Assembly (NCBI GenBank): GCA_034439615.1
Contig: JAWXAT010000013.1
Span: forward strand, 1 to 53,652
DNA: 53,652 bases
Reading direction: 5' to 3'
Source of the DNA: Oligoflexia bacterium
GTDB lineage: Bacteria; Bdellovibrionota; Bdellovibrionia; JABDDW01
The notes under the pieces were generated by a model. The model did not search any database. It was not told the DNA's origin and worked only from the letters and a program-made list of their open reading frames with translations. Positions 3,413-23,552 of this stretch are shown in pieces; positions within the stretch are counted from its first letter, which is position 1, and the number at the start of each line of letters is the position of its first letter. The position numbers and the translations under genes are program-made.

Positions 3413-3855
3413 ATGAATACAGAATTGGTTTCTATAAAAGATGCTTCAGCTTTAACACAAAAACCAGAGAGAACTTTGCTTGAGCATCTTGCTCGCGGAG
3501 TGCTCACGGGCAAAAAACTGGGTCGTAACTGGGTCATAGATTTAGCAACACTTAAAAATTCTGGGTTGGCCAAGATATTACCCCCCCAACACATTGCGAC
3601 ATAAATCCCGAGTCTCATTCTTCTCACGAAGTAAATGAACAAGAGAGAAATCAAAAATCTCAGAATAAAAAACCAAGAATCACACCAAAAAGTCTTGGTC
3701 TCTTTCAAGAATTGCTAAATTTAAAGAGTACAATTCCTACTCAACATAAAATTATCTTTGATGAAGCCGTTAAAAATTTGGTCGTTGGTTATTCAGAATT
3801 GTCATCAATAACGAGGATTGATGAATTCTTCATAGGCATTCCTGACGACTTTTGA
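3413..3855 (+). pseudogene. Excisionase-like HTH gene with frameshift at a C7 run
   Basis: From ATG 3413 the frame encodes a MerR/excisionase-type HTH: VSIKDASALTQKPERTLLEHLARGV followed by GKKLGRNWVID (residues 6-46). It ends at 3604, just after a run of seven C (3581-3587). In the next frame, without a break, the sequence stays open to TGA at 3853-3855 and encodes a sensible hydrophilic then helical tail (about 85 residues: PRITPKSLGLFQELLN, then DEAVKNLVVGYSELSS). One extra C would join them into a protein of about 147 aa. The gene is therefore frameshifted, phase-variable, or affected by a sequencing error in the homopolymer. Confidence 0.6.
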
Positions 3856-4750: not shown

Positions 4751-6260
4751 ATGCCTAAACCTCTAAAGAAAAAAACTCCCCCCAAATCTAATCAATTAGA
4801 AAAATGTCCAACAGGCATCATTGGATGAAGTTACAGAAGGCGGGTTTCCGAAAAATAGAACCACACTCATTTCTGGTGGTGCTGGTTCTGGGAAAACTCT
4901 TTTGGGGATTGATTTTTTAATCAAGGGTGCGGCTGATTTTAATGAACCAGGTATTTTCATGTCTTTTGAAAAGACAAAGGACGATCTCTATAAAGATGTG
5001 GCTTCATTAAATCTGGATTTATCTAGGCTTGTTTCACAAAAAAAAATTCTGATTGAACACGTAATACTTGATCGCAAAGACATCAGAGAGGCTGACTTTA
5101 ATTTAGAGGGAATACTCGTTCGCTTAGAACATGCCATTGATTCCATTGGAGCTAAACGAGTTGTTTTAGATTCTATTGAATCGCCCTTCGCAGGCATTAC
5201 AGACGCAGGTATTCTTCGAATTGAAATCAAAAGACTTTTTAAGTGGCTTAAAGATAAAAATGTTACGGCAATCGTGACCGGCGAACCAAGAGACGGTTCG
5301 TACACTCGCCACGGCCTTGAGGAGTTCGTTTCTGATTGTATCATTTTACTAGACAACAGAGTTAAAGAACAAATAGCTATCCGAAGACTTCGTGTTATTA
5401 AATATCGTGGTTCAAATCATGGAACAAACGAATATCCATTCGTCATTGATAAGTCAGGACTTTCTGTTATTCCGATCACGTCAGCAGGGCTTGATCAGCC
5501 AGGTACATCCAAGAAAGTTCCAACAGGAATTTCGTCGCTCGACAAAATGTTCAAGGGTAAACCAGGATTCACATTAGGCAGTACGATACTGGTTTCAGGC
5601 ACTGCGGGCACAGGTAAAACAAGTCTTGCGGCAGCCTTCGCTTTAGAAACCTGCGAACGTGGCGAGAGGTGTCTTTTCTTATCTTATGAGGAATCTTCCG
5701 GGCAACTTATTCAAAATATGAGTTCAATTGGTATTGATTTGGCGCCTTGGGTAAAAAAAGGACTTTTAAAAATTGTCTCCGTAAGACCTTCCTTTTTTGG
5801 ACTAGAAATGCATTTACTCGATTTATACAAAATCGTTGATAGTTTTAAACCAAAGTCTGTCGTTGTGGACCCTCTGACAAGTCTTATTGGAGAGGGCGAC
5901 GAGCGCGAAATCAGGTCCATGATTACTCGCATGATTGATCTTCTAAAATCTAGATCAATCACCACTTTTTTCACAAGCCTCGTTTCCTCATCAGCACAAA
6001 ATGATACGAGCGGTGAAATCGGAGTCTCATCTCTAATTGACACATGGATTGTTGTGCGAGAATTAGAAGAAGATGCAGGAAAAAAACGTATTCTCGGACT
6101 TTTCATTGTGAAGTCGCGTGGTACCGGTCACGAGAGTGATGTTCATAAATTAATTTTGAGCGATGATGGAATTAGCTTGGTACCAATGGATCCTGTGGCA
6201 GGCGCCCATATGAGCAGGGGTAATGAAAAGATTGTTACATCAGGTAGCGTCGGGATATGA
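4751..6260 (+). pseudogene. Two-domain KaiC-like ATPase, frameshifted near the N-terminus
   Basis: Starting at ATG 4751 (AAGGA upstream), the product reads to PTGIIG and hits TGA at 4826. In another frame the family continuation LDEVTEGGFPKNRTT begins at once and stays open to 6260. The two parts make a KaiC protein of about 500 aa. It has two RecA-like domains with P-loops GGAGSGKT and GTAGTGKT. Domain 2 keeps the paired catalytic glutamates (SYEES), while domain 1 has SFEKT, with Lys in place of the second Glu. At the KaiC S431/T432 position domain 2 has Ser-Ser (VSSLIDTW, 6024-6047), so phosphorylatable residues are present. Restoring one lost ATTGG unit would repair the frame. Without the N-terminal 25 codons an internal start might still give a protein. 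Confidence 0.8.
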
Positions 6261-6268
6261 CTTAACTC

Positions 6269-6842
6269 ATGAAAACACTTCGGCCAAATTTCATAGTCGG
6301 TATTGGTGGCTCAGCTGGAGGGGTTGAAGCATATCAAGCGCTTTTAGATGCAATGCCGCCTAATACAGATATGGCATTTGTAGTGATCGCTCATCTCATG
6401 CCCAGCGCAAGTAGTCAGTTGGCGCAAATTCTTTCACGACACACGAAAATGCCTGTCAAGGTAGCTTTGGAGTGTATGTCGATCCGGAAAAATCATGTCT
6501 ACGTAATTCCACCCGACGCCGATCTCTTCATGGAAAACTATAAGTTCAAGGTCGTCTCCCCACGTATGGTGAGAAACAATCAGATAGATCTATTTTTGAC
6601 TTCTCTTGCAGAGGCGATGGGTGCAAATTTGATCGGCATTATCTTATCTGGGTATGATGGCGATGGCAGCGAGGGATGCAAAAAAATCAAAGAAAAAAAA
6701 AGGAATAACCTTTTCTCAAGACATAACTGCCGAAGTAAACGTCATGCCTCTCAGTGCTCAAGCCACAGGTTGCGTTGACTTCGTCTTACCACCTGATGCC
6801 ATAGCAAAAGAGCTTCTAAAAATCTCAAAAACCGCAAATTAA
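6269..6842 (+). pseudogene. Second stand-alone CheB domain, frameshifted at an A9 run
   Basis: The first frame (6269-6778) gives a CheB catalytic domain with Ser15 (GGSAGG), His42 (VIAHLM) and the Asp-bearing SGYDGDGSEG. After a run of nine A (6693-6701) this frame turns to non-homologous residues, while another frame resumes the family end: GITFSQDITAEVNVMPLSAQ, then VDFVLPPDAIAKELL, ending at 6842. Removing one A would join them into a protein of about 190 aa. All three catalytic residues precede the break. It lies 8 bp after KaiC, so the two probably share a transcript. CheB target unknown. Confidence 0.75.
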
Positions 6843-6873
6843 AATTAATGTGTGGACGGCCAAGATGAGACCC

Positions 6874-9800
6874 TTATGTGTCTTTTCGAGCGAGCTTGGC
6901 GATTGTTTTTACTAGATGTTCGCCATCGACAGGCTTAGCAAGATGGGCCTGAAAGCCAGCAGATAGAGCTCGGCGAACATCATCCTCTCCAGCATATGCC
7001 GTCACCGCCAACGCTGGAGTATTTCCACGAGAGCCTTGTCCTAATCTTCTGATCTTCTGAATAAAACTATACCCGTCTTCTCCAGGCATCGCGATATCGC
7101 ATAGGAGAACGTCAGGTTTAAACTGTGCAAACATATTTAGCCCTTCTCTAGCAGATCCGGCAGTCTTGACCTCAGCCCCAACGGCATAAAGCACTTCGCT
7201 AAATGCTTCGCGTGCGTTTGCTTCATCATCGACTATCAGCAGGCGAAGACCATCGAGTCTAACGGGCACGCTTTCGCCAGATTTTGAACTCTTCAGAGGG
7301 TCTCTATGATTTGCTTGAGGTTCTGAGAGGGAATGCTCCGATTTGATCGGAAGTATTACCGTGAAAGTAGCTCCCAATTGATCACCAGGACTTTCTGCCC
7401 GAATGGTACCATCGTGCAGTTCAACCAGATTTTGTACAATTGCGAGTCCCAAACCTAGTCCGCCATGAACTCTGATGCTGGAACTATCTTCCTGACTAAA
7501 ACGGTCAAAAATTTTCGGCAAAAATTCTGCATCGATTCCTTTGCCAGAGTCCACCACCTGGATCATTGCCTTTGCTTTTTCACCGTTTTTTTCTTTGAAT
7601 CGATCCACCCTCACAGAAACCTTCGAATCCGGTGCTGAGAACTTAACTGCATTGGAGAGTAAATTCCAAAAAACTTGCTGAAGGCGTATCGGGTCAGCCA
7701 TGATAGTCCCTACTTGGGGTGCAAAAAAAGTATCAAGCTGAATTGATTTCGCCTCCGCCATGGGGCGGACAGCCACGATCGCTGAAAGGACAACTGAAGC
7801 AGTGTCTATTTCACGGATATCAAGCGAGAGCTTGCCCGCTACGATACGCGATACATCCAGAAGATCATTAATGAGCTGAGCTTGGGACTTCCCGCTCACT
7901 TCAATCACCTCGGCAGCTCGCTTAATTTTTTCAGGGTCCAATTTCCCGGTACGAATCAATTGTGCCCAAGACAAGATCGCTGTTAGCGGAGTTCTCAATT
8001 CATGCGAAAGAGTCGCCAAAAAAAGATCCTTGGAACGATTAGCTTTTTCAGCTTCTGTTCTAGCTTCTTTCACTTCCTTTAGGCTCAACTTTAGACTGTC
8101 AATGTCAACGAGAGCCAGGACAGCTCCATCAATCTTATTATCAACTGTTTTATAAGGCCTAACTTGAAGCCGAAACCAGTGCCCCTTGCGGTCTTGAATT
8201 TCGAGTTCTTGGGATTTCATTGAATCAATAGCGTCTGAAACCATCATCTCTAAATCTAGTTCACCCCCCGGTGCAGTGAAGTTGAGTTTTAAATCACTTA
8301 ATGGTCGTCCCACATCGGTCGCAATGAGGTTGAGTGCCTTTCCTGCAAGCGGTGTAAATCTGCGGACCCTTCGGTCGGCCCCTAACATGACAATGGGTAT
8401 TTCAACGCTCCCTAATAAATTGATGAGGTCATTATTAGTTTCACTCTGATCAGAGCTTCTGGTTTGCAATTCGTCATTTACAGTTGTGAGTTCTTCATTC
8501 CCGCTTTGAAGCTCTTCTTTGGCTGTTTGCAGTTCCTCATTGGCGCTCTGAAGTTCTTCATTTGCCGAAGTGAGATCCTCCTGCGCTGTTTCAAATTTTT
8601 CGATCAATGACTGCTGATATTCTTGGGCTGCTGTCAACTCCTGTTGTAACTCCAAATTATAAGGATCTTTTTTTACGCCACCCTTGCGGCCTTTCTGAGC
8701 GAGCGCCTTTTTTTTCTTTTCTTTTGATTCTGCAGCTCTTTCAAAAAGAATCAAATACAAGTGTTCTTTTATGTCAGGAATTACATTCAAATCGAATGAC
8801 TTACCGCTACGACCATCTCCAATTCTCAAACCTTCTTTTCTCACCGATTGCCCTGATTTTTTGGCTGCTTGAATTGTCATCCGAATGACACGTATTAAAT
8901 CGGGGTGGGCCATTTTAAAAAGATGATGGCTGGGAACTCCGGGCGCTGGTTCAATAAATGGAGACGTTCGGCCACGAAGCTGCAAGATTTCCATGTCTTC
9001 GCTTACTAGGACGCCAGGACAATCGGCTTGAATCATTTGATCAGCGATCTTTTGGACGTCCCGAGGTACTTTTGTAAAACTCTTCGGCGTCAAAACGGTT
9101 TCGTTTCTTCTGACATAGGTGCCGCTTGGAAATCGGAGGCTTAGCGCAATGGGCGCATCTTTTCTTGCATAAATCTTATTGGTTTTATCCACTTGTGAGA
9201 AGAGATCCGAAAACCCACCAATGGTCTCAGACTTTCCCAACCAAAGAAAGCCACGAGCCAGGAGCGAATAATGAAAAATGGGAATGACATGCTTTTGCAA
9301 CGTGGTCGTAAAATAGATAAGCAAGTTGCGACAAGATATTAGATCAATTTTTGCGAAGGGAGAATCGGTCGTAAGATCGAGCCTAGAAAACACGCATATA
9401 TCTCGAATTGATTTTGCGATCTTGTATCCGCCGCCTTCAACTTGTATGAAAAATCGGTTAAGCCGTTCCCGAGAAACATCGCTACTTATACTATGCGGGT
9501 ATTTTCCCAACCGGGCTTTTTGAATGGCTTGCTCGCTGATGTCGGATGCAAAGATTTGAATCGGTGTGTGCGAAGATTTTTCGCCCAAAAACTCTAATAA
9601 CGACATTGCAATGGAGTAAGCTTCTTCTCCTGTCGAACATCCTGGAACCCAAACGCGGAGCGGAACGCCTGCGCCACGATTCTGCATTAGCTTTGGAAAT
9701 ACCTCTGTCTTCAAAGCTTTAAACGCATCTGGGTCTCGAAAAAAGTTCGTCACATGGATCAAAATGTCAGCGTATAGAGCCTTTACCTCGTCCAGATTGT

Positions 9801-10647
9801 GAGAGAGAAATTTGTTATATGCTTCTAAAGATTCCATCTTATGGAGTACCATCCGGCGCTCTATTCGGCGTTTCACGGTGGTAGATTTATAAAAGGCGAA
9901 GTCCACATGACATTGTTTTCTTAGCAAATGGAAAATATGGCGAAAACCGTCATGAGGATCGAGTGGTTGATCGTCCGGCATAGCTATTGGATCCGCAGAA
10001 GAAGCCAGAATTACGTATGGGTGATGAGCGATCCTTGCCAACTCCTGTGCGATTTGTTCTGGCGTTAAAATGAGATCGACACTCCCAGATTCAATAGCAC
10101 TCTGGGGCATGTTATCAAATTTTGCAGATTGTGGAGTTTGAGCAAACGTGATTCCGCCTTCAGCCTTTATGGCCGTCAGTCCTTGCGTTCCGTCTGCCCC
10201 TGTTCCCGATAAGACAATCCCAATGGCGAGATTTTTCTGATCCTCCGCAAGGGCATGGAAAAAGTAATCAATCACTAAGTGCTGACCGCGAACCTCGGTA
10301 CGAGGTACAAGATTTAAAACTCCATGAAATATCCCCATGCTAAAACCTGGTGGAATGACATAGACATGGTTTGGTTCCGCGCGCATGCCGTCTGTGACTT
10401 CGGTGATAGGCATTTTGGAAACTCGGGAAAGTATTTCGGAAGACATGCTTGCATGATTTGGATCAAGATGTTGAAGAAGAACAAATGCCATGCCTGTATC
10501 AGTTGGAAGAGTTGTAAGAAATTTTGTGAAGGCTTCTAACCCGCCGGCAGAAGCTCCAACTCCGACAATTGGAAACCCACCAATATCTTGTCTCGAATGA
10601 ATCTTCTCCGTAGAGGTAAGTTGTTTTGATTTTTTCCCATTGGCCAT
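6874..10647 (-). CDS. CheB-CheR-PAS-histidine kinase-receiver fusion
   Basis: This 1257-residue hybrid signalling protein has, in order: a CheB methylesterase (about 25-210; Ser33, His60, Asp152), CheR N-terminal helices (about 235-290), a CheR SAM methyltransferase (about 295-490; NFFRD, VPGCSTGEEAYS), a long coiled coil of ANEELQ repeats (about 660-735), a PAS domain (about 740-860), HisKA with SHELRTPLT, HATPase_c with GLGLGLAIV, and a C-terminal receiver (about 1134-1257, phospho-Asp1184). No receptor is attached. Such fusions are thought to link receptor-like methylation to phosphorelay output outside classical chemotaxis. It converges with the frameshifted CheB gene and follows the receiver gene on the same strand by 47 bp. 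Confidence 0.9.
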   Translation of the reverse strand: MANGKKSKQLTSTEKIHSRQDIGGFPIVGVGASAGGLEAFTKFLTTLPTDTGMAFVLLQHLDPNHASMSSEILSRVSKMPITEVTDGMRAEPNHVYVIPPGFSMGIFHGVLNLVPRTEVRGQHLVIDYFFHALAEDQKNLAIGIVLSGTGADGTQGLTAIKAEGGITFAQTPQSAKFDNMPQSAIESGSVDLILTPEQIAQELARIAHHPYVILASSADPIAMPDDQPLDPHDGFRHIFHLLRKQCHVDFAFYKSTTVKRRIERRMVLHKMESLEAYNKFLSHNLDEVKALYADILIHVTNFFRDPDAFKALKTEVFPKLMQNRGAGVPLRVWVPGCSTGEEAYSIAMSLLEFLGEKSSHTPIQIFASDISEQAIQKARLGKYPHSISSDVSRERLNRFFIQVEGGGYKIAKSIRDICVFSRLDLTTDSPFAKIDLISCRNLLIYFTTTLQKHVIPIFHYSLLARGFLWLGKSETIGGFSDLFSQVDKTNKIYARKDAPIALSLRFPSGTYVRRNETVLTPKSFTKVPRDVQKIADQMIQADCPGVLVSEDMEILQLRGRTSPFIEPAPGVPSHHLFKMAHPDLIRVIRMTIQAAKKSGQSVRKEGLRIGDGRSGKSFDLNVIPDIKEHLYLILFERAAESKEKKKKALAQKGRKGGVKKDPYNLELQQELTAAQEYQQSLIEKFETAQEDLTSANEELQSANEELQTAKEELQSGNEELTTVNDELQTRSSDQSETNNDLINLLGSVEIPIVMLGADRRVRRFTPLAGKALNLIATDVGRPLSDLKLNFTAPGGELDLEMMVSDAIDSMKSQELEIQDRKGHWFRLQVRPYKTVDNKIDGAVLALVDIDSLKLSLKEVKEARTEAEKANRSKDLFLATLSHELRTPLTAILSWAQLIRTGKLDPEKIKRAAEVIEVSGKSQAQLINDLLDVSRIVAGKLSLDIREIDTASVVLSAIVAVRPMAEAKSIQLDTFFAPQVGTIMADPIRLQQVFWNLLSNAVKFSAPDSKVSVRVDRFKEKNGEKAKAMIQVVDSGKGIDAEFLPKIFDRFSQEDSSSIRVHGGLGLGLAIVQNLVELHDGTIRAESPGDQLGATFTVILPIKSEHSLSEPQANHRDPLKSSKSGESVPVRLDGLRLLIVDDEANAREAFSEVLYAVGAEVKTAGSAREGLNMFAQFKPDVLLCDIAMPGEDGYSFIQKIRRLGQGSRGNTPALAVTAYAGEDDVRRALSAGFQAHLAKPVDGEHLVKTIAKLARKDT

Positions 10648-16707: not shown

Positions 16708-19700
16708 ATGATGGGTGGCGGGTTGGCGACGAAAAGCAAATCTCAGACTCGTCGTCGTGAAGTACCACCTAAAAAAGATAAGTATTCCGACGACCAGCCT
16801 GTACATAATAAAGTCGACGCGCGTGAAGAGGCCTCAGTGCCTCCTCAACCAGCATTTCTAATCGTTGGTGTCGGAGCCTCAGCTGGTGGTCTTGAGTCTT
16901 TCATGGAGATGTTTAAGAGTCTTCCACCCGATACGGGCATGTCTTTTGTTTTAATCCAGCATCTCTCGCCCCAACACTTAAGTATCTTGAGTTCTTTGGT
17001 ACAAAAAGCAACTCGAATGAATGTACAAGAAGCTGTCGATCAGACGTTGGTTAAGCCAAATAATGTGTACATCATCCCACCAAACACCACGCTTGAAATC
17101 TTTCATGGTGTTCTTCATTTAAGTTCAAGGCAAGAACCCCACGGTGGGATGCCAGTGAATGCATTTTTAACTTCACTTGCAAAAGACCAAGGAAATCTCG
17201 CCGTCGGAATTATCTTATCAGGTACTGGGTCTGACGGAGCAAATGGCCTCAGAGATATTAAAGCCGACGGTGGCATTACACTTGTCCAACAACCAACAAC
17301 AGCTAAGTTTGATGGAATGCCACAAGCTGCCATTGAAGTTGCTGCTCCAGATTTTATTCTTCCTATTGAAGCAATCTCTTCAGAATTAGTTAAAATATCA
17401 AGTCACCCTATAGTCAAAAAAACTTTGCCAATAGAAGACAATATTCCAAGTCCCGAAACAGAACAGATTCTGCAAAAAATATTTCTTTTAGTCAGAAATG
17501 CCACAAAAATTGATTTCTCGTCTTACAAGTATCCCACCCTCATTCGGCGAATTAAAAGAAGGATGGTTTTACACCGCGTAAATAATTTGAAACATTATCT
17601 GGAGTATCTGCAAATCACGCCTCTAGAAGTACGCTCTTTATTTGAAGATCTATTAATCAATGTGACTGATTTCTTTAGAGACAACAAGGCTTTTGAATCT
17701 CTTAAAACAAAAGTGTTTCCTGAAATTATTAAGTCAAAAATTCCAAGTACTCCTATTCGAATTTGGGTTCCTGGATGTTCAACTGGTGAAGAGGTCTACT
17801 CTATTGCCATTTCACTCATTGAATATTTAGGAGAATCACTTCATAAGTACCCAATTCAAATTTACGGTACAGACATTTGCGAGCCAGCGATTAAGATTGC
17901 TCGCCTTGGAATTTATCCTGAGACAGCCGCTCCAAAAATTTCACAAGCAAGGCTTGAGCGATTTTTTATAAAAGAACAAGGTGGCTATCGCATCATGAAA
18001 TCGGTTCGCCATTATTGTATTTTTTCGATTCAAGATGTCACAAGTCATCCACCAATTAATCGACTTGATCTTTTGAGTTGTCGAAATCTCATGATTTATC
18101 TTGGTACCAAAATTCAAAAGAAATTGATGGATACCTTTCATTATGCATTAAATCCCAACGGATTTTTAATGCTCGGGTCATCAGAAAGTGTTGGGCCTGT
18201 AGCAAACCTTTTTGCGATAATGGACAATAAAAATAAGATCTACAGCAAAAAGAGCGCACAAATACCTTATATGCGCGAAATTAGTGAAGCGCCCTCTATA
18301 AACCAAACACCTATTGCATTCTCAGGTACTACTGAGACAACGCTTAAACCACCTTTGAAAACAACCGATCCGGTATTTGCAGCCGAGCAGTTAATGTTAG
18401 AAAAATATTCTCCTGCTTGGTTACTGGTGAATCAAGCATTAGACATTGTTCAATTTCGTGGCCATACGGACCATTTTATTGCTCCTGCTTCGGGGCAACC
18501 TACCTGGAATCTCATGAAAATGCTGAGAACAGGACTTTCCCCAACGGTTCGAGTTTTAATTCATTCAGCGATTAAAGAACAAATATCAGCTAGAAAAAGC
18601 GGTCTAAAAGTTACTTTTGGTAAAGTAACAAGAGCCGTTGATATTGAGGTCGCTCCAATCAGAATTTCAAACTTGGAACAGCACTTTCTCATTGTATTCA
18701 TGGAGCAAAAAGTTGAAATCTCAAAAACAGGGGGTTTAAAAACAAAGGGCAAAAAACAAAAAACAAAAAAGAAAGAAATAGACCCAAGTGCGCTTGAAAT
18801 TACTGCTTTAAAAGAAGAATTACAACTAACTCATAATTCACTTCAATCTATTATTGAAGATCAAAGTGCTTCTAGTGAAGAAATGCAAAGTACTACAGAA
18901 GAAGTTTTATCCGCTAATGAAGAGCTGCAAAGCACTAACGAAGAGCTTGAGACAGCAAAAGAAGAATTGCAATCAACCAACGAAGAACTCTCCACTCTCA
19001 ATGACGAATTAACTAACAGAAATAATGAGCTTGACCATTTAAGCAATGATCTTATCAATGTATTGAGTAACGCTAACGTATCAATAGTCATGGTGGATTC
19101 GGAACTTCGAATTCGACGCTTCACTCCTATGGCTGAGAAGCTTCTAAATTTAATCCCCACCGATGTCGGGAGAGTTCTGACTGTCATTAACTTCGGATTT
19201 CAAATTGAAAATTTGGACAAACAAATAACCTCCGTTATACAAACTTTGGAGACTTTCGAAAAAGAAACTAGAGACCAAAATGGTATTTGGTATTCAGTCA
19301 GAATCCGCCCCTACAAGACTATAGATAATAAAATTGATGGCGCTGTAATTGTCTTCGTGAATATCAATGACGTAAAAATTAAGCAGATCCATATTGAAGA
19401 GGCAACAAGATACTCAGACGGTGTCATCCAAACTATTCGAGACCCATTGGTTGTACTTGATCAGAATCTGTGTGTTGAGCGCGCTAATCAGGCTTTTTAT
19501 GATACATTTCAAGTTATAGAGAAAGACACCATAGGACGACCATTTTACGAACTTGGTAATCGTCAATGGAACATTCCTGAGCTTAGAAATTTACTAGAAG
19601 ACGTATTGCCTCAAAAATCTGAGGTAAGAAATTTTGAAGTCGTTCATCACTTTGAAAAAATTGGTGCGAAGATTATGACTCTCAACGCTCGAACACTTGA

Positions 19701-19812
19701 ATGGGCAGGGCAAAAGAAGCATCTCATTCTCATCAGGCTTCATGATCTAACAGAACGTGAGCAGATAAAAAAAATAGAAGCTAAAGGGGATGAAAATGGA
19801 ACAAGAAAATAA
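16708..19812 (+). CDS. CheB-CheR-PAS-PAS fusion protein
   Basis: This 1034-residue protein has, in order: a basic N-terminal tail, CheB methylesterase (about 50-230; Ser58, His85, LSGTGSDG Asp), CheR N-terminal helices (about 255-310), CheR methyltransferase (about 315-510; NVTDFFRD, VPGCSTGEEVYS), a coiled coil with four or more ANEELQ-type repeats (about 690-770), then two PAS domains (about 775-890 and 900-1020). Unlike the fusion at 6874-10647 it lacks kinase and receiver. The next gene, a PAS histidine kinase, overlaps its 3' end and would supply them. No chemoreceptor is present, so its role in taxis is unproven. Confidence 0.9.
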   Translation: MMGGGLATKSKSQTRRREVPPKKDKYSDDQPVHNKVDAREEASVPPQPAFLIVGVGASAGGLESFMEMFKSLPPDTGMSFVLIQHLSPQHLSILSSLVQKATRMNVQEAVDQTLVKPNNVYIIPPNTTLEIFHGVLHLSSRQEPHGGMPVNAFLTSLAKDQGNLAVGIILSGTGSDGANGLRDIKADGGITLVQQPTTAKFDGMPQAAIEVAAPDFILPIEAISSELVKISSHPIVKKTLPIEDNIPSPETEQILQKIFLLVRNATKIDFSSYKYPTLIRRIKRRMVLHRVNNLKHYLEYLQITPLEVRSLFEDLLINVTDFFRDNKAFESLKTKVFPEIIKSKIPSTPIRIWVPGCSTGEEVYSIAISLIEYLGESLHKYPIQIYGTDICEPAIKIARLGIYPETAAPKISQARLERFFIKEQGGYRIMKSVRHYCIFSIQDVTSHPPINRLDLLSCRNLMIYLGTKIQKKLMDTFHYALNPNGFLMLGSSESVGPVANLFAIMDNKNKIYSKKSAQIPYMREISEAPSINQTPIAFSGTTETTLKPPLKTTDPVFAAEQLMLEKYSPAWLLVNQALDIVQFRGHTDHFIAPASGQPTWNLMKMLRTGLSPTVRVLIHSAIKEQISARKSGLKVTFGKVTRAVDIEVAPIRISNLEQHFLIVFMEQKVEISKTGGLKTKGKKQKTKKKEIDPSALEITALKEELQLTHNSLQSIIEDQSASSEEMQSTTEEVLSANEELQSTNEELETAKEELQSTNEELSTLNDELTNRNNELDHLSNDLINVLSNANVSIVMVDSELRIRRFTPMAEKLLNLIPTDVGRVLTVINFGFQIENLDKQITSVIQTLETFEKETRDQNGIWYSVRIRPYKTIDNKIDGAVIVFVNINDVKIKQIHIEEATRYSDGVIQTIRDPLVVLDQNLCVERANQAFYDTFQVIEKDTIGRPFYELGNRQWNIPELRNLLEDVLPQKSEVRNFEVVHHFEKIGAKIMTLNARTLEWAGQKKHLILIRLHDLTEREQIKKIEAKGDENGTRK

Positions 19813-21112
19813 TCCATCCCCTGAATTTCGACGCATGTCCAAAGATGAACTGTCACAACGGCTAAACGCATTGCAATCATGTTCTGGTGATAATGAAAGT
19901 TACAAAGAACGTGAAGAAGAATTTCAAAAAGTACTTCATGAGCTTGAAGTTTATCAAATTGAACTTGAGATGCAAAACCGTGAGTTACGTGACTCAAGAG
20001 AAGCACTTGAGGAGTCACATGATCGGTATGTGAATCTCTACGATTTTGCTCCCACTGGATATATTACGTTCAACGATCAAGGAATAATGAAGGAGCTTAA
20101 CTTAACCACAGCAGGAATGCTTGGTGTTGAACGACGTTGGCTCGTGGAGCGTTCCATCGCGCCATGGATTGTGAGTCAAGATCTACCTTCATTTAGACAG
20201 CATATAAAAAAATGTCAGGCGACCGAAGATAGGGTAATTGCAACTCTTCAACTCACACGAAAAGATAAAGAGATAATTGTCGTTGAATTGCTCAGTGTTT
20301 GCTCTACTCACCGTGAAACAGGAGAGAAAGTAATCAGAACAGCTGTTATTGATATAACGAAAAAGAAAGAGCTCGAAGATGAATTGCAGCGGTCTCTAAA
20401 TACGCTGAAAGAAGAGCGCAAACTTCGAGAAATATTTGTGTCAACTTTAACTCATGACTTGCGAACACCCCTCTCTGCAGCCAAGATAGGGGCAGAACTC
20501 ATTATTAGAAACTCGGGTCCAGAGGATAAAAATCGCACTTTAGCTTCTCGAATTTTAGGAAGTACTAACCGCATGGATATTATGATTCAGGATTTATTAG
20601 ATGCCAATCGCATCAGTGCGGGACAAAAATTACCACTTAAAATTCAAGATTATGATTTTGTCGAACTCGTTAAACAAACTATTGAGGTGCTTGTAAATAT
20701 CCACGGTGATAGATTTCAGCTCAAATCGCCGAAATCCTGCCCCAGCTCGATGGATCCATCGGGGATGCGTAGAGTTATCGAAAATATTTGTAACAATGCT
20801 GTGAAATATGGCTACCCAAAGACCCCCATTACGTTAACTATCCAACCCACAAGCGATATAATATTGTTTTCAGTTCACAATGAAGGGCCTGCGATTCCTA
20901 GAAAAGACCAAGCTATGCTCTTTAATCAATTTCAGAGATCTCAATCTGCCCAAACTAGTGAAAAAAAAGGTTGGGGTGTTGGACTTACATTGATACGCGG
21001 AATAGTGGAGAGCCACGGGGGGAATGTACATTTAGAGAGTGATAGCGACAAAGGTACAACTTTTATTATCGAACTACCTTCTCTTAAAAGAAGTAAAGAA
21101 TCTTTAAATTAA
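19796..21112 (+). CDS. PAS-domain sensor histidine kinase
   Basis: I choose ATG 19796 because AAGGGG sits about 6 bp upstream; an in-frame ATG two codons earlier is also possible. The product of about 438 aa has a coiled-coil start (EELEVYQIELEMQNREL-like), a PAS domain (about 75-195), HisKA with LTHDLRTPLSA (about 220-285), and HATPase_c with NICNNAVKYG and KGWGVGLTL. It is cytoplasmic, with no membrane segment. It overlaps the CheB-CheR-PAS gene by 17 bp, so both are made from one mRNA and probably work as a split version of the larger fusion in this window. Confidence 0.88.
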   Translation: MEQENNPSPEFRRMSKDELSQRLNALQSCSGDNESYKEREEEFQKVLHELEVYQIELEMQNRELRDSREALEESHDRYVNLYDFAPTGYITFNDQGIMKELNLTTAGMLGVERRWLVERSIAPWIVSQDLPSFRQHIKKCQATEDRVIATLQLTRKDKEIIVVELLSVCSTHRETGEKVIRTAVIDITKKKELEDELQRSLNTLKEERKLREIFVSTLTHDLRTPLSAAKIGAELIIRNSGPEDKNRTLASRILGSTNRMDIMIQDLLDANRISAGQKLPLKIQDYDFVELVKQTIEVLVNIHGDRFQLKSPKSCPSSMDPSGMRRVIENICNNAVKYGYPKTPITLTIQPTSDIILFSVHNEGPAIPRKDQAMLFNQFQRSQSAQTSEKKGWGVGLTLIRGIVESHGGNVHLESDSDKGTTFIIELPSLKRSKESLN

Positions 21113-21289: not shown

Positions 21290-22261
21290 CTACTTCTCAA
21301 AAGACGATTTTTTAGGCAGTTGTTTGGCGAGAAACTTGTCCAACATGTGAGCGATTTCCGGTTCAGAGAAGTTGTCATTGAGAGCGTAAAATTTTGGCTT
21401 CTTCTTTTCTATTTTTCTAAAAATCTCGCGCGTCTTTTTTACGTCATCGGTTAAAACACCAAATACAAACTCACGATCGGTTTTCTTTTTACTGACCAAC
21501 TGAAATTTGAGGCCATGTTTTTTATCTTGAATCAAATAATAATGATGAAGAAACGTTGGCACCACATTTTTCCAATCACGAAATTTGGCTTTTGAAGTGC
21601 GCGTGAGCTCCTTCTTCCAAACACGATGCATTTTTTCAAAGGCAGTTTTGTGATAAATATAGGGAATATGACATAGAAAATATCTTTTCTTTTTACCGTA
21701 TCTTTTATTGAGTAAAAACATAGTGTTAAAAACAGCACTCAACATCAACTTCTTTTTATCACGAATATTTTCACGAAATTCATTCTCATTTTCTTTAACA
21801 ACGAGATCATGAAGAAAGATCTTTGTGGCCCCCTTTTTAGAGACCAGATCTTCTTTTTTAACTTTTCTGCCGAAAAAATAATCATCATTCATATGAAAAA
21901 AAACCTCACTCAAACCAGGTATTCTCCATAAATGCTGTTCGATGGCATTGGTATTAAAAGAGGGAAGATGACGTTTATTGGGAAAAAGATCATTTTGATT
22001 AATAACGCGAAGTCTTGGATGCTTCAAATTTAGCCATGCAGGATGATAGCTGGGTGTGACAAGGTATATTATACCTTTATGCCACGGCAGGTACTTTTCA
22101 AGGGATCTCAGTGAGTATTTTAATTCATTGTTGTTGCGATCACGTGATGTATTGATCACATCTGGGCCGCCAAAATAGCGCCTGCTCCGTCGATATTCTT
22201 TATTTCGCCCGTCTACCCAGGTGTAGACAATTGAGCACAGAGATGTATCAAATTTAGACAC
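21290..22261 (-). CDS. Stealth-family capsular polysaccharide phosphotransferase
   Basis: The 323-residue protein carries the conserved regions of Stealth proteins: CR1 SIVYTWVDG (about 10-18); CR2 DRNNNELKYSLRSLEKYLPW through LPSFNTNAIEQHLWRIPGL and HMNDDYFFG (about 41-130); and a likely CR3/CR4 region with LCHIPYIYHKTAFEKM and ADREFVFGVL-like residues. Stealth enzymes transfer sugar-1-phosphate to build phosphodiester-linked surface polysaccharides. Catalytic NDD is present. It is divergent from the small peptide gene and near an SGNH hydrolase, which is consistent with glycan assembly and modification. Confidence 0.9.
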   Translation of the reverse strand: MSKFDTSLCSIVYTWVDGRNKEYRRSRRYFGGPDVINTSRDRNNNELKYSLRSLEKYLPWHKGIIYLVTPSYHPAWLNLKHPRLRVINQNDLFPNKRHLPSFNTNAIEQHLWRIPGLSEVFFHMNDDYFFGRKVKKEDLVSKKGATKIFLHDLVVKENENEFRENIRDKKKLMLSAVFNTMFLLNKRYGKKKRYFLCHIPYIYHKTAFEKMHRVWKKELTRTSKAKFRDWKNVVPTFLHHYYLIQDKKHGLKFQLVSKKKTDREFVFGVLTDDVKKTREIFRKIEKKKPKFYALNDNFSEPEIAHMLDKFLAKQLPKKSSFEK

Positions 22262-22299
22262 TCAAACTCCTTAGGAGATGACTTAGATAATAAGACTTA

Positions 22300-22335
22300 A
22301 GTATAGTTACATAAATACCGATAGGTAGTTATACT
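22300..22335 (+). promoter_or_regulatory. Sigma70-type promoter within an inverted repeat
   Basis: TTACAT (22307-22312) and TATACT (22330-22335) are separated by 17 bp. AGTATAGTTAC (22300-22310) and GTAGTTATACT (22325-22335) form an inverted repeat with 9 of 11 positions matching, covering both promoter hexamers. This would suit a repressor operator. It lies 34 bp ahead of the 24-codon gene. Confidence 0.5.
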
Positions 22336-22368
22336 GATAGAAGAAACTTTTCACAAGGGGGAGGCAAT

Positions 22369-22443
22369 ATGAAAGCAAAAGCTAAAAAGCTAAGTAAGAA
22401 AAAGCCTGATGTTGGATCTGGCAGCGATAGTAGCTGGATGTAA
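22369..22443 (+). CDS. 24-residue small protein with strong ribosome binding site
   Basis: ATG 22369 follows AAGGGGGAGG by about 6 bp, a very strong ribosome binding site, and the frame ends at TAA 22441-22443. The peptide has a Lys-rich N-half (KAKAKKLSKKK) and a Gly/Ser-rich acidic end (DVGSGSDSSWM). A clear promoter lies upstream and an 11-bp hairpin begins 8 bp after the stop, so this forms a complete transcription unit of about 140 nt. It has no membrane segment or signal peptide. The leader-and-core look is reminiscent of a modified-peptide precursor, but no modifying enzyme is adjacent. Function unknown. Confidence 0.6.
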   Translation: MKAKAKKLSKKKPDVGSGSDSSWM

Positions 22444-22451
22444 AGATTAGC

Positions 22452-22480
22452 TCAAAGAGCCCCTTTTCAGGGCTCTTTGA
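22452..22480 (+). terminator. 11-bp stem-loop terminator after the small gene
   Basis: TCAAAGAGCCC (22452-22462) pairs perfectly with GGGCTCTTTGA (22470-22480) around a 7-nt loop. ATTT follows, and a longer T-run comes at 22490. The hairpin lies between the small gene and the SGNH gene, so it probably ends or attenuates transcription there. Confidence 0.65.
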
Positions 22481-22493
22481 ATTTAAGGCTTTT

Positions 22494-23552
22494 TTGATAT
22501 ATTTTTACGGCATTATTATTTTTCTAGGTCTCACTCTCCTTCTTGACGCCATTCTTACCAGTCAATATCGAAAGCGAAAAAGAGATCGGGCTCGCGCCAT
22601 TACACCCAGCGTGAGAAACTCTCTTTATCATCACGAGCTAAAACCCAATTGGTCAACACCCCAAAGAGTTTTGGGTCCTTACGTTTATTCCCATTACACC
22701 AATTCACTAGGGTTTCGTGATCAATGCGTTCGCGAGGTAAGTCTTCAAACCTCTTCTTCTCGCCTTGTTATTTTAGGAGATTCGTATGTTGAGGGTCTTG
22801 GAGTGAATTATGAAGACACCTTTGTTGGCCAGGTTGCAAAAGCATTACCTCACATCGAAGTTTTAAATGCGGGAGTTTCGATCTATTCACCTTCAATCTT
22901 TTATAGAAAGATGAAATTTCTTTTTGAAGAAAAAAAATTGCAACTTGATATTTTGGCTGTTTTTATCGACATCTCTAATGTTCAAGACGAATACGTGCGA
23001 TCTTTTGATTTCAATGAAAACATAATCGTCGATGCTGACCGTCTTAAGCAAAATCCAACTATTTTACCAAAAAAGTTTTTTACCTTTAGCACGCTTCTTC
23101 TTAAGTCTGAAAAATGGTTAAAACAAACTTTTATTCCCGATTCTGTTTATAAGAGACACATTGATTTTAAAAGATCCAATTGGACAATTAATAAGGACTT
23201 TTTTCAAGAGTATGGAGTTGAAGGCTTAGAAAAATGCAAAGCCAATATGAATAAACTTCTTACCCTTGCTCGAGAAAACGGAGTGAAGAAGGTGATCTTA
23301 GCTGTGTTTCCTTGGCCCACTCAAATATACTACAAAGATTTAGATTCAATGCAGGTGAAGATATGGCAAGAGTGGGCATCTAAAAATAACGTCACGTTTA
23401 TAAATCTTTTTCCAGATTATATCGCTCCAAATAAAAACCCAATGGAGATTCTTAAAAAGTATTTTCTCCCTTGGGACATTCATTGGAACCAAGCGGGTCA
23501 TAAGCTTGTAGCCACTCGATTTTTACAAGTAATCAAAGATTTGAAAAATTAA
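22494..23552 (+). CDS. Membrane-anchored SGNH hydrolase-like protein
   Basis: The 352-residue protein has one N-terminal membrane segment (about residues 2-20) and an SGNH/GDSL hydrolase fold. Block I is LVILGDSYVEGLGV with the nucleophile Ser, NAG occurs in NAGVSIYS (block II), and DIHWNQAGH supplies the Asp-His pair (block V). It resembles the SGNH domains that add or remove acyl groups on extracellular polysaccharides. The start is TTG at 22494 with a weak site upstream. It follows the small gene's terminator and probably acts with nearby glycan genes such as Stealth. Substrate unknown. Confidence 0.75.
   Translation: MIYFYGIIIFLGLTLLLDAILTSQYRKRKRDRARAITPSVRNSLYHHELKPNWSTPQRVLGPYVYSHYTNSLGFRDQCVREVSLQTSSSRLVILGDSYVEGLGVNYEDTFVGQVAKALPHIEVLNAGVSIYSPSIFYRKMKFLFEEKKLQLDILAVFIDISNVQDEYVRSFDFNENIIVDADRLKQNPTILPKKFFTFSTLLLKSEKWLKQTFIPDSVYKRHIDFKRSNWTINKDFFQEYGVEGLEKCKANMNKLLTLARENGVKKVILAVFPWPTQIYYKDLDSMQVKIWQEWASKNNVTFINLFPDYIAPNKNPMEILKKYFLPWDIHWNQAGHKLVATRFLQVIKDLKN

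What the first reader, a model, noticed from the sequence alone, without database searches (positions are those of the whole stretch)
22300..22480. Complete transcription unit for an unannotated 24-residue peptide
A sigma70-type promoter covered by an inverted repeat, a very strong ribosome binding site, a 24-codon gene and an 11-bp hairpin terminator fit together in 181 bp. The peptide has a Lys-rich half and a Gly/Ser/Asp-rich end. Gene callers usually miss such units. It could be a secreted peptide, toxin, sRNA or modified-peptide precursor.
Basis: partly seen in the sequence, partly recalled or inferred. Interest (0 to 1): 0.6.

Follow-up and report, generated by a model that had tools for sequence, protein, structure and literature searches.

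The report
Short leader ORF before hydrolase gene
The tiny 24-codon gene and its RNA hairpin are probably real, but instead of standing alone they seem to be the front end of the message for the next gene, an SGNH-type hydrolase, so they most likely tune that gene's expression, as many known bacterial leader ORFs do.

Summary
The 24-codon ORF (22369-22443), its very strong Shine-Dalgarno and an 11-bp hairpin (22452-22480) are real. Together they are rarer than chance: one such unit in 63 kb of intergenic DNA sampled from 397 kb of this genome, none in 60 shuffles. The promoter hexamers are at chance level. The overlapping inverted repeat is borderline: 4.7% of shuffles do as well. The hairpin is not a canonical terminator: its U-run starts 9 nt after the stem and leads into the start codon of the next gene.

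An SGNH hydrolase gene (22494-23552, same strand) starts 13 nt after the hairpin. Homologues support this start, and no promoter-like site lies between the ORF's promoter region and it. The ORF plus hairpin is therefore best read as the 5' leader of the hydrolase mRNA: a translated upstream ORF with an attenuator-like hairpin. This is inferred: there is no expression data, and no peptide homologue or close hydrolase relative was found, so conservation cannot be tested. Known kind of element, function unproven.

The parts
22300..22335 (.). Imperfect inverted repeat (14-base arms, 11 matches, spacer 8) spanning the -35 and -10 candidates; possible operator in the gap between the leftward Stealth gene and the rightward unit
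   Evidence: unique in genome; 4.7% of shuffles as good: borderline
22306..22335 (+). sigma70-like promoter candidate GTTACA-18-TATACT
   Evidence: 9 of 12, but such sites are at chance density; best placed of those upstream of the ORF
22355..22364 (+). Very strong Shine-Dalgarno AAGGGGGAGG, 4 nt before the ATG
   Evidence: -11.0 kcal/mol, as strong as the top 3.1% of 322 long ORFs
22369..22443 (+). 24-codon ORF MKAKAKKLSKKKPDVGSGSDSSWM + TAA; probable translated upstream ORF
   Evidence: no homologue found
22452..22480 (+). Perfect 11-bp hairpin, loop 7, between the ORF stop and the hydrolase start; attenuator-like or terminator-like
   Evidence: only 1 of 318 long ORFs has a >=10-bp perfect hairpin in the 60 nt before its start
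22398..22407 (+). 5' arm of a predicted long-range helix (partner 22486-22495) that would cover the hydrolase SD and start
   Evidence: not beyond synonymous recodings, and replaced by another pairing when more downstream sequence is folded
22485..22496 (+). Weak SD AAGG and TTG start of the SGNH hydrolase, written across the U-run TTTTTTG
   Evidence: SD -2.7 kcal/mol; N-terminal length agrees with homologues
22494..23552 (+). SGNH/GDSL-type hydrolase with N-terminal membrane segment; probable main gene of the transcript
   Evidence: (Lipase_GDSL_2 E 3e-7, just below the curated cut-off)
21290..22261 (-). Divergent Stealth-family gene (conserved regions CR1-CR4), which shares the intergenic region

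Best explanation
The 24-codon ORF is a translated upstream ORF in the 5' leader of the SGNH hydrolase mRNA, and the hairpin between them limits expression of the hydrolase. One promoter upstream of the ORF drives both. Ribosomes load heavily on the short ORF (very strong SD) and poorly on the hydrolase (weak SD, TTG start). The hairpin, with the predicted pairing of the AAGGC/UUUUUU segment, keeps the hydrolase start closed or ends part of the transcripts; slow or stalled translation of the Lys-rich ORF would change the fold and the hydrolase output. Shown: the arrangement, the SD strengths, the hairpin, the absence of a second promoter-like site. Inferred: co-transcription, translation, and any regulation or signal.
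For: The hydrolase starts 13 nt after the hairpin. Two Pelagibacteraceae homologues have 41 residues before a shared motif, against 43 here for the TTG at 22494, and both begin with a membrane segment. The looser promoter scan lists no site between 22336 and 22494. The ORF with its SD and hairpin is beyond chance. A >=10-bp hairpin just before a start is found in 1 of 318 long ORFs, this one. The hydrolase SD-side bases 22488-22489 are predicted paired in every context folded.
Against: No expression data. No homologue of the ORF, and no close relative of the hydrolase among 367 other phylum genomes, so no conservation or covariation. The long-range helix is not beyond chance: 11% of synonymous recodings and 43% of codon permutations pair as well. 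The fold around the hydrolase start depends on how much downstream sequence is included. ORF codon use is no better than composition-matched random choice (30% as good). A non-sigma70 promoter inside the ORF would not be seen.
Confidence: 0.5

Rival explanations
1. An independent small-protein gene: the basic 24-residue peptide itself acts in the cell (for example by binding RNA or membranes), the hairpin ends most transcripts, and the hydrolase is expressed at a low level by read-through as the second gene of an operon.
For: SD among the strongest in the sample and a clean ORF; joint rarity of SD, ORF and hairpin; Lys-rich half and Gly/Ser/Asp end are a plausible basic, disordered peptide (sequence).
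Against: No homologue in 59 relatives, 367 other phylum genomes, a 257-Gb genome pattern scan or a viral scan, and no family match; the hairpin lacks an adjacent U-run.
Confidence: 0.25
2. A small non-coding RNA, or a structured 5' leader, whose open frame is incidental.
For: Whole stretch 22340-22500 folds better than shuffles (z -2.2); 1% of codon permutations and 6% of synonymous recodings fold as well.
Against: An SD of -11.0 kcal/mol four bases before an ATG is unexpected for an untranslated RNA; no Rfam family reaches its gathering score in the window and the weak hits in 22200-22600 are all below threshold; most of the fold excess is the hairpin alone.
Confidence: 0.1
3. Chance: an A-rich intergenic stretch with an accidental ORF next to a hairpin of no consequence.
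For: Promoter hexamers at chance level, dyad borderline, neutral codon use, no conservation.
Against: 0 of 60 shuffles of all 63 kb intergenic DNA give such a combination at SD<=-9 and stem>=10, though these thresholds were chosen with the candidate in view.
Confidence: 0.12

Closest known systems
toiL upstream ORF of the topAI-yjhQ transcript, Escherichia coli (PMC12121999; abstract and passages read)
   Same: Short ORF with its own SD upstream of a co-oriented gene, and a predicted structure that covers the SD of the downstream gene.
   Different: toiL has conserved first residues, SHAPE, ribosome profiling and reporter evidence and senses antibiotics; here there is sequence alone, no conservation, and a separate 11-bp hairpin between the two frames. 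The downstream gene is unrelated.
uORF-dependent transcription attenuation of a DUF1127 gene, Sinorhizobium meliloti (PMC12218461; abstract and section list read)
   Same: A translated upstream ORF followed by premature termination before the main gene, as one branch of the proposal here.
   Different: Experimentally supported there; there C-rich early codons matter, whereas this ORF is A-rich and Lys-rich.
Amino-acid-codon attenuator leaders such as thrL, hisL, trpL (recalled; peTrpL seen as an abstract in listings)
   Same: Short leader ORF rich in one residue (7 Lys of 24), then a hairpin, then the gene.
   Different: The next gene is an SGNH hydrolase, not a lysine gene; no alternative antiterminator was shown; the hairpin has no adjacent U-run.

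Membership tests
Regulatory upstream ORF (leader peptide) | Short ORF with its own ribosome binding site upstream of a co-oriented gene | tested here: met
Regulatory upstream ORF (leader peptide) | ORF and main gene on one transcript | tested here: inconclusive
   No promoter-like site between them at >=8 of 12 and only 13 nt between hairpin and start, but no transcript data
Regulatory upstream ORF (leader peptide) | Translation of the ORF changes expression of the main gene | not testable with these tools
   needs reporters
Regulatory upstream ORF (leader peptide) | ORF position or key residues conserved in front of orthologous genes | tested here: inconclusive
   No close orthologue of the hydrolase found; in the two distant homologues L027 and L028 a tRNA-like stretch precedes the gene by eye
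Classical amino-acid attenuator | Intrinsic terminator with U-run directly after the stem | tested here: not met
   T-run starts 9 nt after the stem; no + strand terminator called
Classical amino-acid attenuator | Mutually exclusive antiterminator fold | tested here: inconclusive
   Alternative pairings of 22486-22495 exist but are not beyond recoded controls
Self-contained small-protein transcription unit | Own promoter and own terminator, independent of the next gene | tested here: not met
   Hairpin without adjacent U-run; the next gene has no visible promoter of its own
Modified-peptide (RiPP) precursor | Adjacent maturation or export enzymes, or match to a precursor family | tested here: not met
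   17 window proteins scanned with Pfam, none a RiPP enzyme; no family match for the peptide. The remaining window proteins and the rest of the genome were not searched for such enzymes

The most novel reading that the evidence does not exclude
The Lys-rich leader peptide is a nascent-chain or translation-rate sensor that opens the hairpin-guarded TTG start of a possibly laterally acquired SGNH hydrolase: a leader-ORF switch in which the main gene's start codon is written into the U-run that follows the hairpin.
Probability: 0.12. Interest if true: 0.5.

Novelty: new member of a known kind. Interest (0 to 1): 0.25.

Why it matters
If true, it adds an unannotated translated leader ORF to a little-studied lineage, and shows that a 'complete small gene' call can be wrong when the next start codon lies just beyond the hairpin. 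It makes a simple two-mutant reporter test possible. By itself it would not change general understanding.

Tried and rejected
Peptide homologues: protein search of 59 genomes (58 relatives and the own genome) gave, besides the own genome, 2 matches at E 0.7-1.5; of 368 phylum genomes, besides its own, 5 matches at E 0.095-0.3. L002 and L022 to L026 were read by eye and judged chance, parts of larger frames or with stops; L003 was not read. Pattern DSSWM-stop in 143 class genomes: 5 hits besides its own, none in a similar short ORF. Genome pattern scan and viral pattern scan: 0 (exact pattern matches only, so diverged peptides would be missed). Phage and plasmid blastn of 22200-22600: none.

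Paralogue or repeat of the unit in the own genome: only weak short matches at E>=0.6. Repeated operator: none beyond itself at up to 3 mismatches; the looser outer-hexamer pattern found one other place, unrelated by eye.

Programmed frameshift from the peptide into the hydrolase frame: considered because the hydrolase frame is open from 22434 and the hairpin starts 8 nt after the stop; rejected because I see no slippery heptamer there (by eye) and homologues start at the TTG equivalent. Lipoprotein-like reading of another frame: rejected, no usable start or SD by eye.

Long-range helix as a proven switch: rejected as proof. The repeat finder found nothing in 22250-22510, although the 11-bp hairpin is there by reading and by fold; I relied on the latter.

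Literature: three searches, listings seen; three papers opened at outline and abstract level (PMC7815308 not used further), one also by passages. No paper on a leader ORF before an SGNH gene appeared in the rows listed (8 of 70 shown).

Full report
What is there. The ORF 22369-22443 (ATG to TAA, 24 codons) exists as described. Its Shine-Dalgarno is exceptional: -11.0 kcal/mol against an assumed anti-SD, matched by 3.1% of 322 long ORFs in 397 kb of this genome and by 0.17% of random positions. Eight bases separate its stop codon from a perfect 11-bp hairpin with a 7-base loop (22452-22462/22470-22480). A search for ATG ORFs of 10-60 codons with SD<=-9 and a >=10-bp perfect hairpin close after the stop gave one case in 132 intergenic stretches (63,332 bases), this one, and none in 60 dinucleotide shuffles; at looser settings 2 against 0.15 expected. 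The strict thresholds were chosen with the candidate known, so the rarity is somewhat flattered.

What is weaker than claimed. The promoter is 9 of 12 consensus bases, and 2.2 kb of this DNA hold 6 such sites against 6.8 in shuffles. The inverted repeat over it matches at 11 of 14 positions; 4.7% of shuffles do as well; it is unique in the genome, so no regulon can be seen. The hairpin is not a textbook terminator: the T6 run begins 9 nt after the stem and the scanner does not report it on the + strand.

What was missed. The reported interval stops at 22480. At 22494 a co-oriented gene begins: an SGNH/GDSL-type hydrolase of 352 residues (Pfam Lipase_GDSL_2, E 3e-7, slightly below the curated cut-off). 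Its TTG start is the end of the TTTTTTG run. Two distant homologues from Pelagibacteraceae (25-26% identity; 2 of 18 candidate stretches confirmed) begin with a membrane segment and have 41 residues before a shared motif, against 43 here, so the start at 22494 is sound to within a few codons. No promoter-like site at 8 of 12 or better lies between 22336 and 22494. The simplest reading is one transcript: short ORF, hairpin, hydrolase. A >=10-bp perfect hairpin in the 60 nt before a start occurs in 1 of 318 long ORFs of the sample, this one.

How it may work. Translation would be strong on the short ORF and weak on the hydrolase (SD -11.0 against -2.7 kcal/mol). Folding predicts that bases 22488-22489 at the hydrolase SD are paired in all contexts tried, either with 22404-22405 inside the short ORF or with bases near 22450. 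Ribosome movement or stalling on the short ORF could then alter access to the hydrolase start, as proposed for toiL/topAI in E. coli (PMC12121999), or termination, as proposed for a DUF1127 gene in Sinorhizobium (PMC12218461, abstract). Against a refined switch: the long-range pairing is as good in 11% of synonymous recodings and 43% of codon permutations. The whole leader fold is better than most of them (6% and 1% as good), a modest signal.

Conservation. No convincing homologue of the peptide was found: 59 genomes, 368 phylum genomes including its own, exact pattern scans, families. The hydrolase itself has no match at E<=1e-10 in the other 367 phylum genomes, and the Stealth gene none at E<=0.001 in the 20 other relatives examined. 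At E<=0.001, 8 of 20 other relatives had partial hydrolase matches. The locus looks lineage-specific, perhaps acquired; its G+C does not stand out from its surroundings. Absence of the peptide elsewhere is thus uninformative about function.

Verdict. A real and clean short ORF with hairpin, misread as a self-standing unit. It is most likely the translated leader of the SGNH hydrolase mRNA. Translation about 0.75 likely, co-transcription with the hydrolase about 0.75, a regulatory effect on it about 0.5 (my estimates).

Noticed in passing
22494-23552: SGNH hydrolase without a match at E<=1e-10 in 367 other genomes of its phylum; the only confirmed relatives in the genome collection are two Pelagibacteraceae records at 25-26% identity, which suggests lateral origin.
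   Followed up: partly
L046, about 3660-3776 (+): Second small unit in the genome sample with SD, 38-codon membrane-type ORF and 9-bp hairpin; no Pfam or NCBIfam match.
   Followed up: partly
L040 (own genome, contig C12), minus strand, 4 nt after the stop of a long ORF: A perfect 28-bp hairpin with loop 3 next to a gene end, far longer than any other seen in the sample.
   Followed up: no
window 4821-10647 and 16708-21112: Two CheB-CheR-PAS fusion proteins (one with kinase and receiver domains), one followed by a histidine kinase gene overlapping it by 23 bases, the other near a KaiC-like ATPase gene.
   Followed up: no
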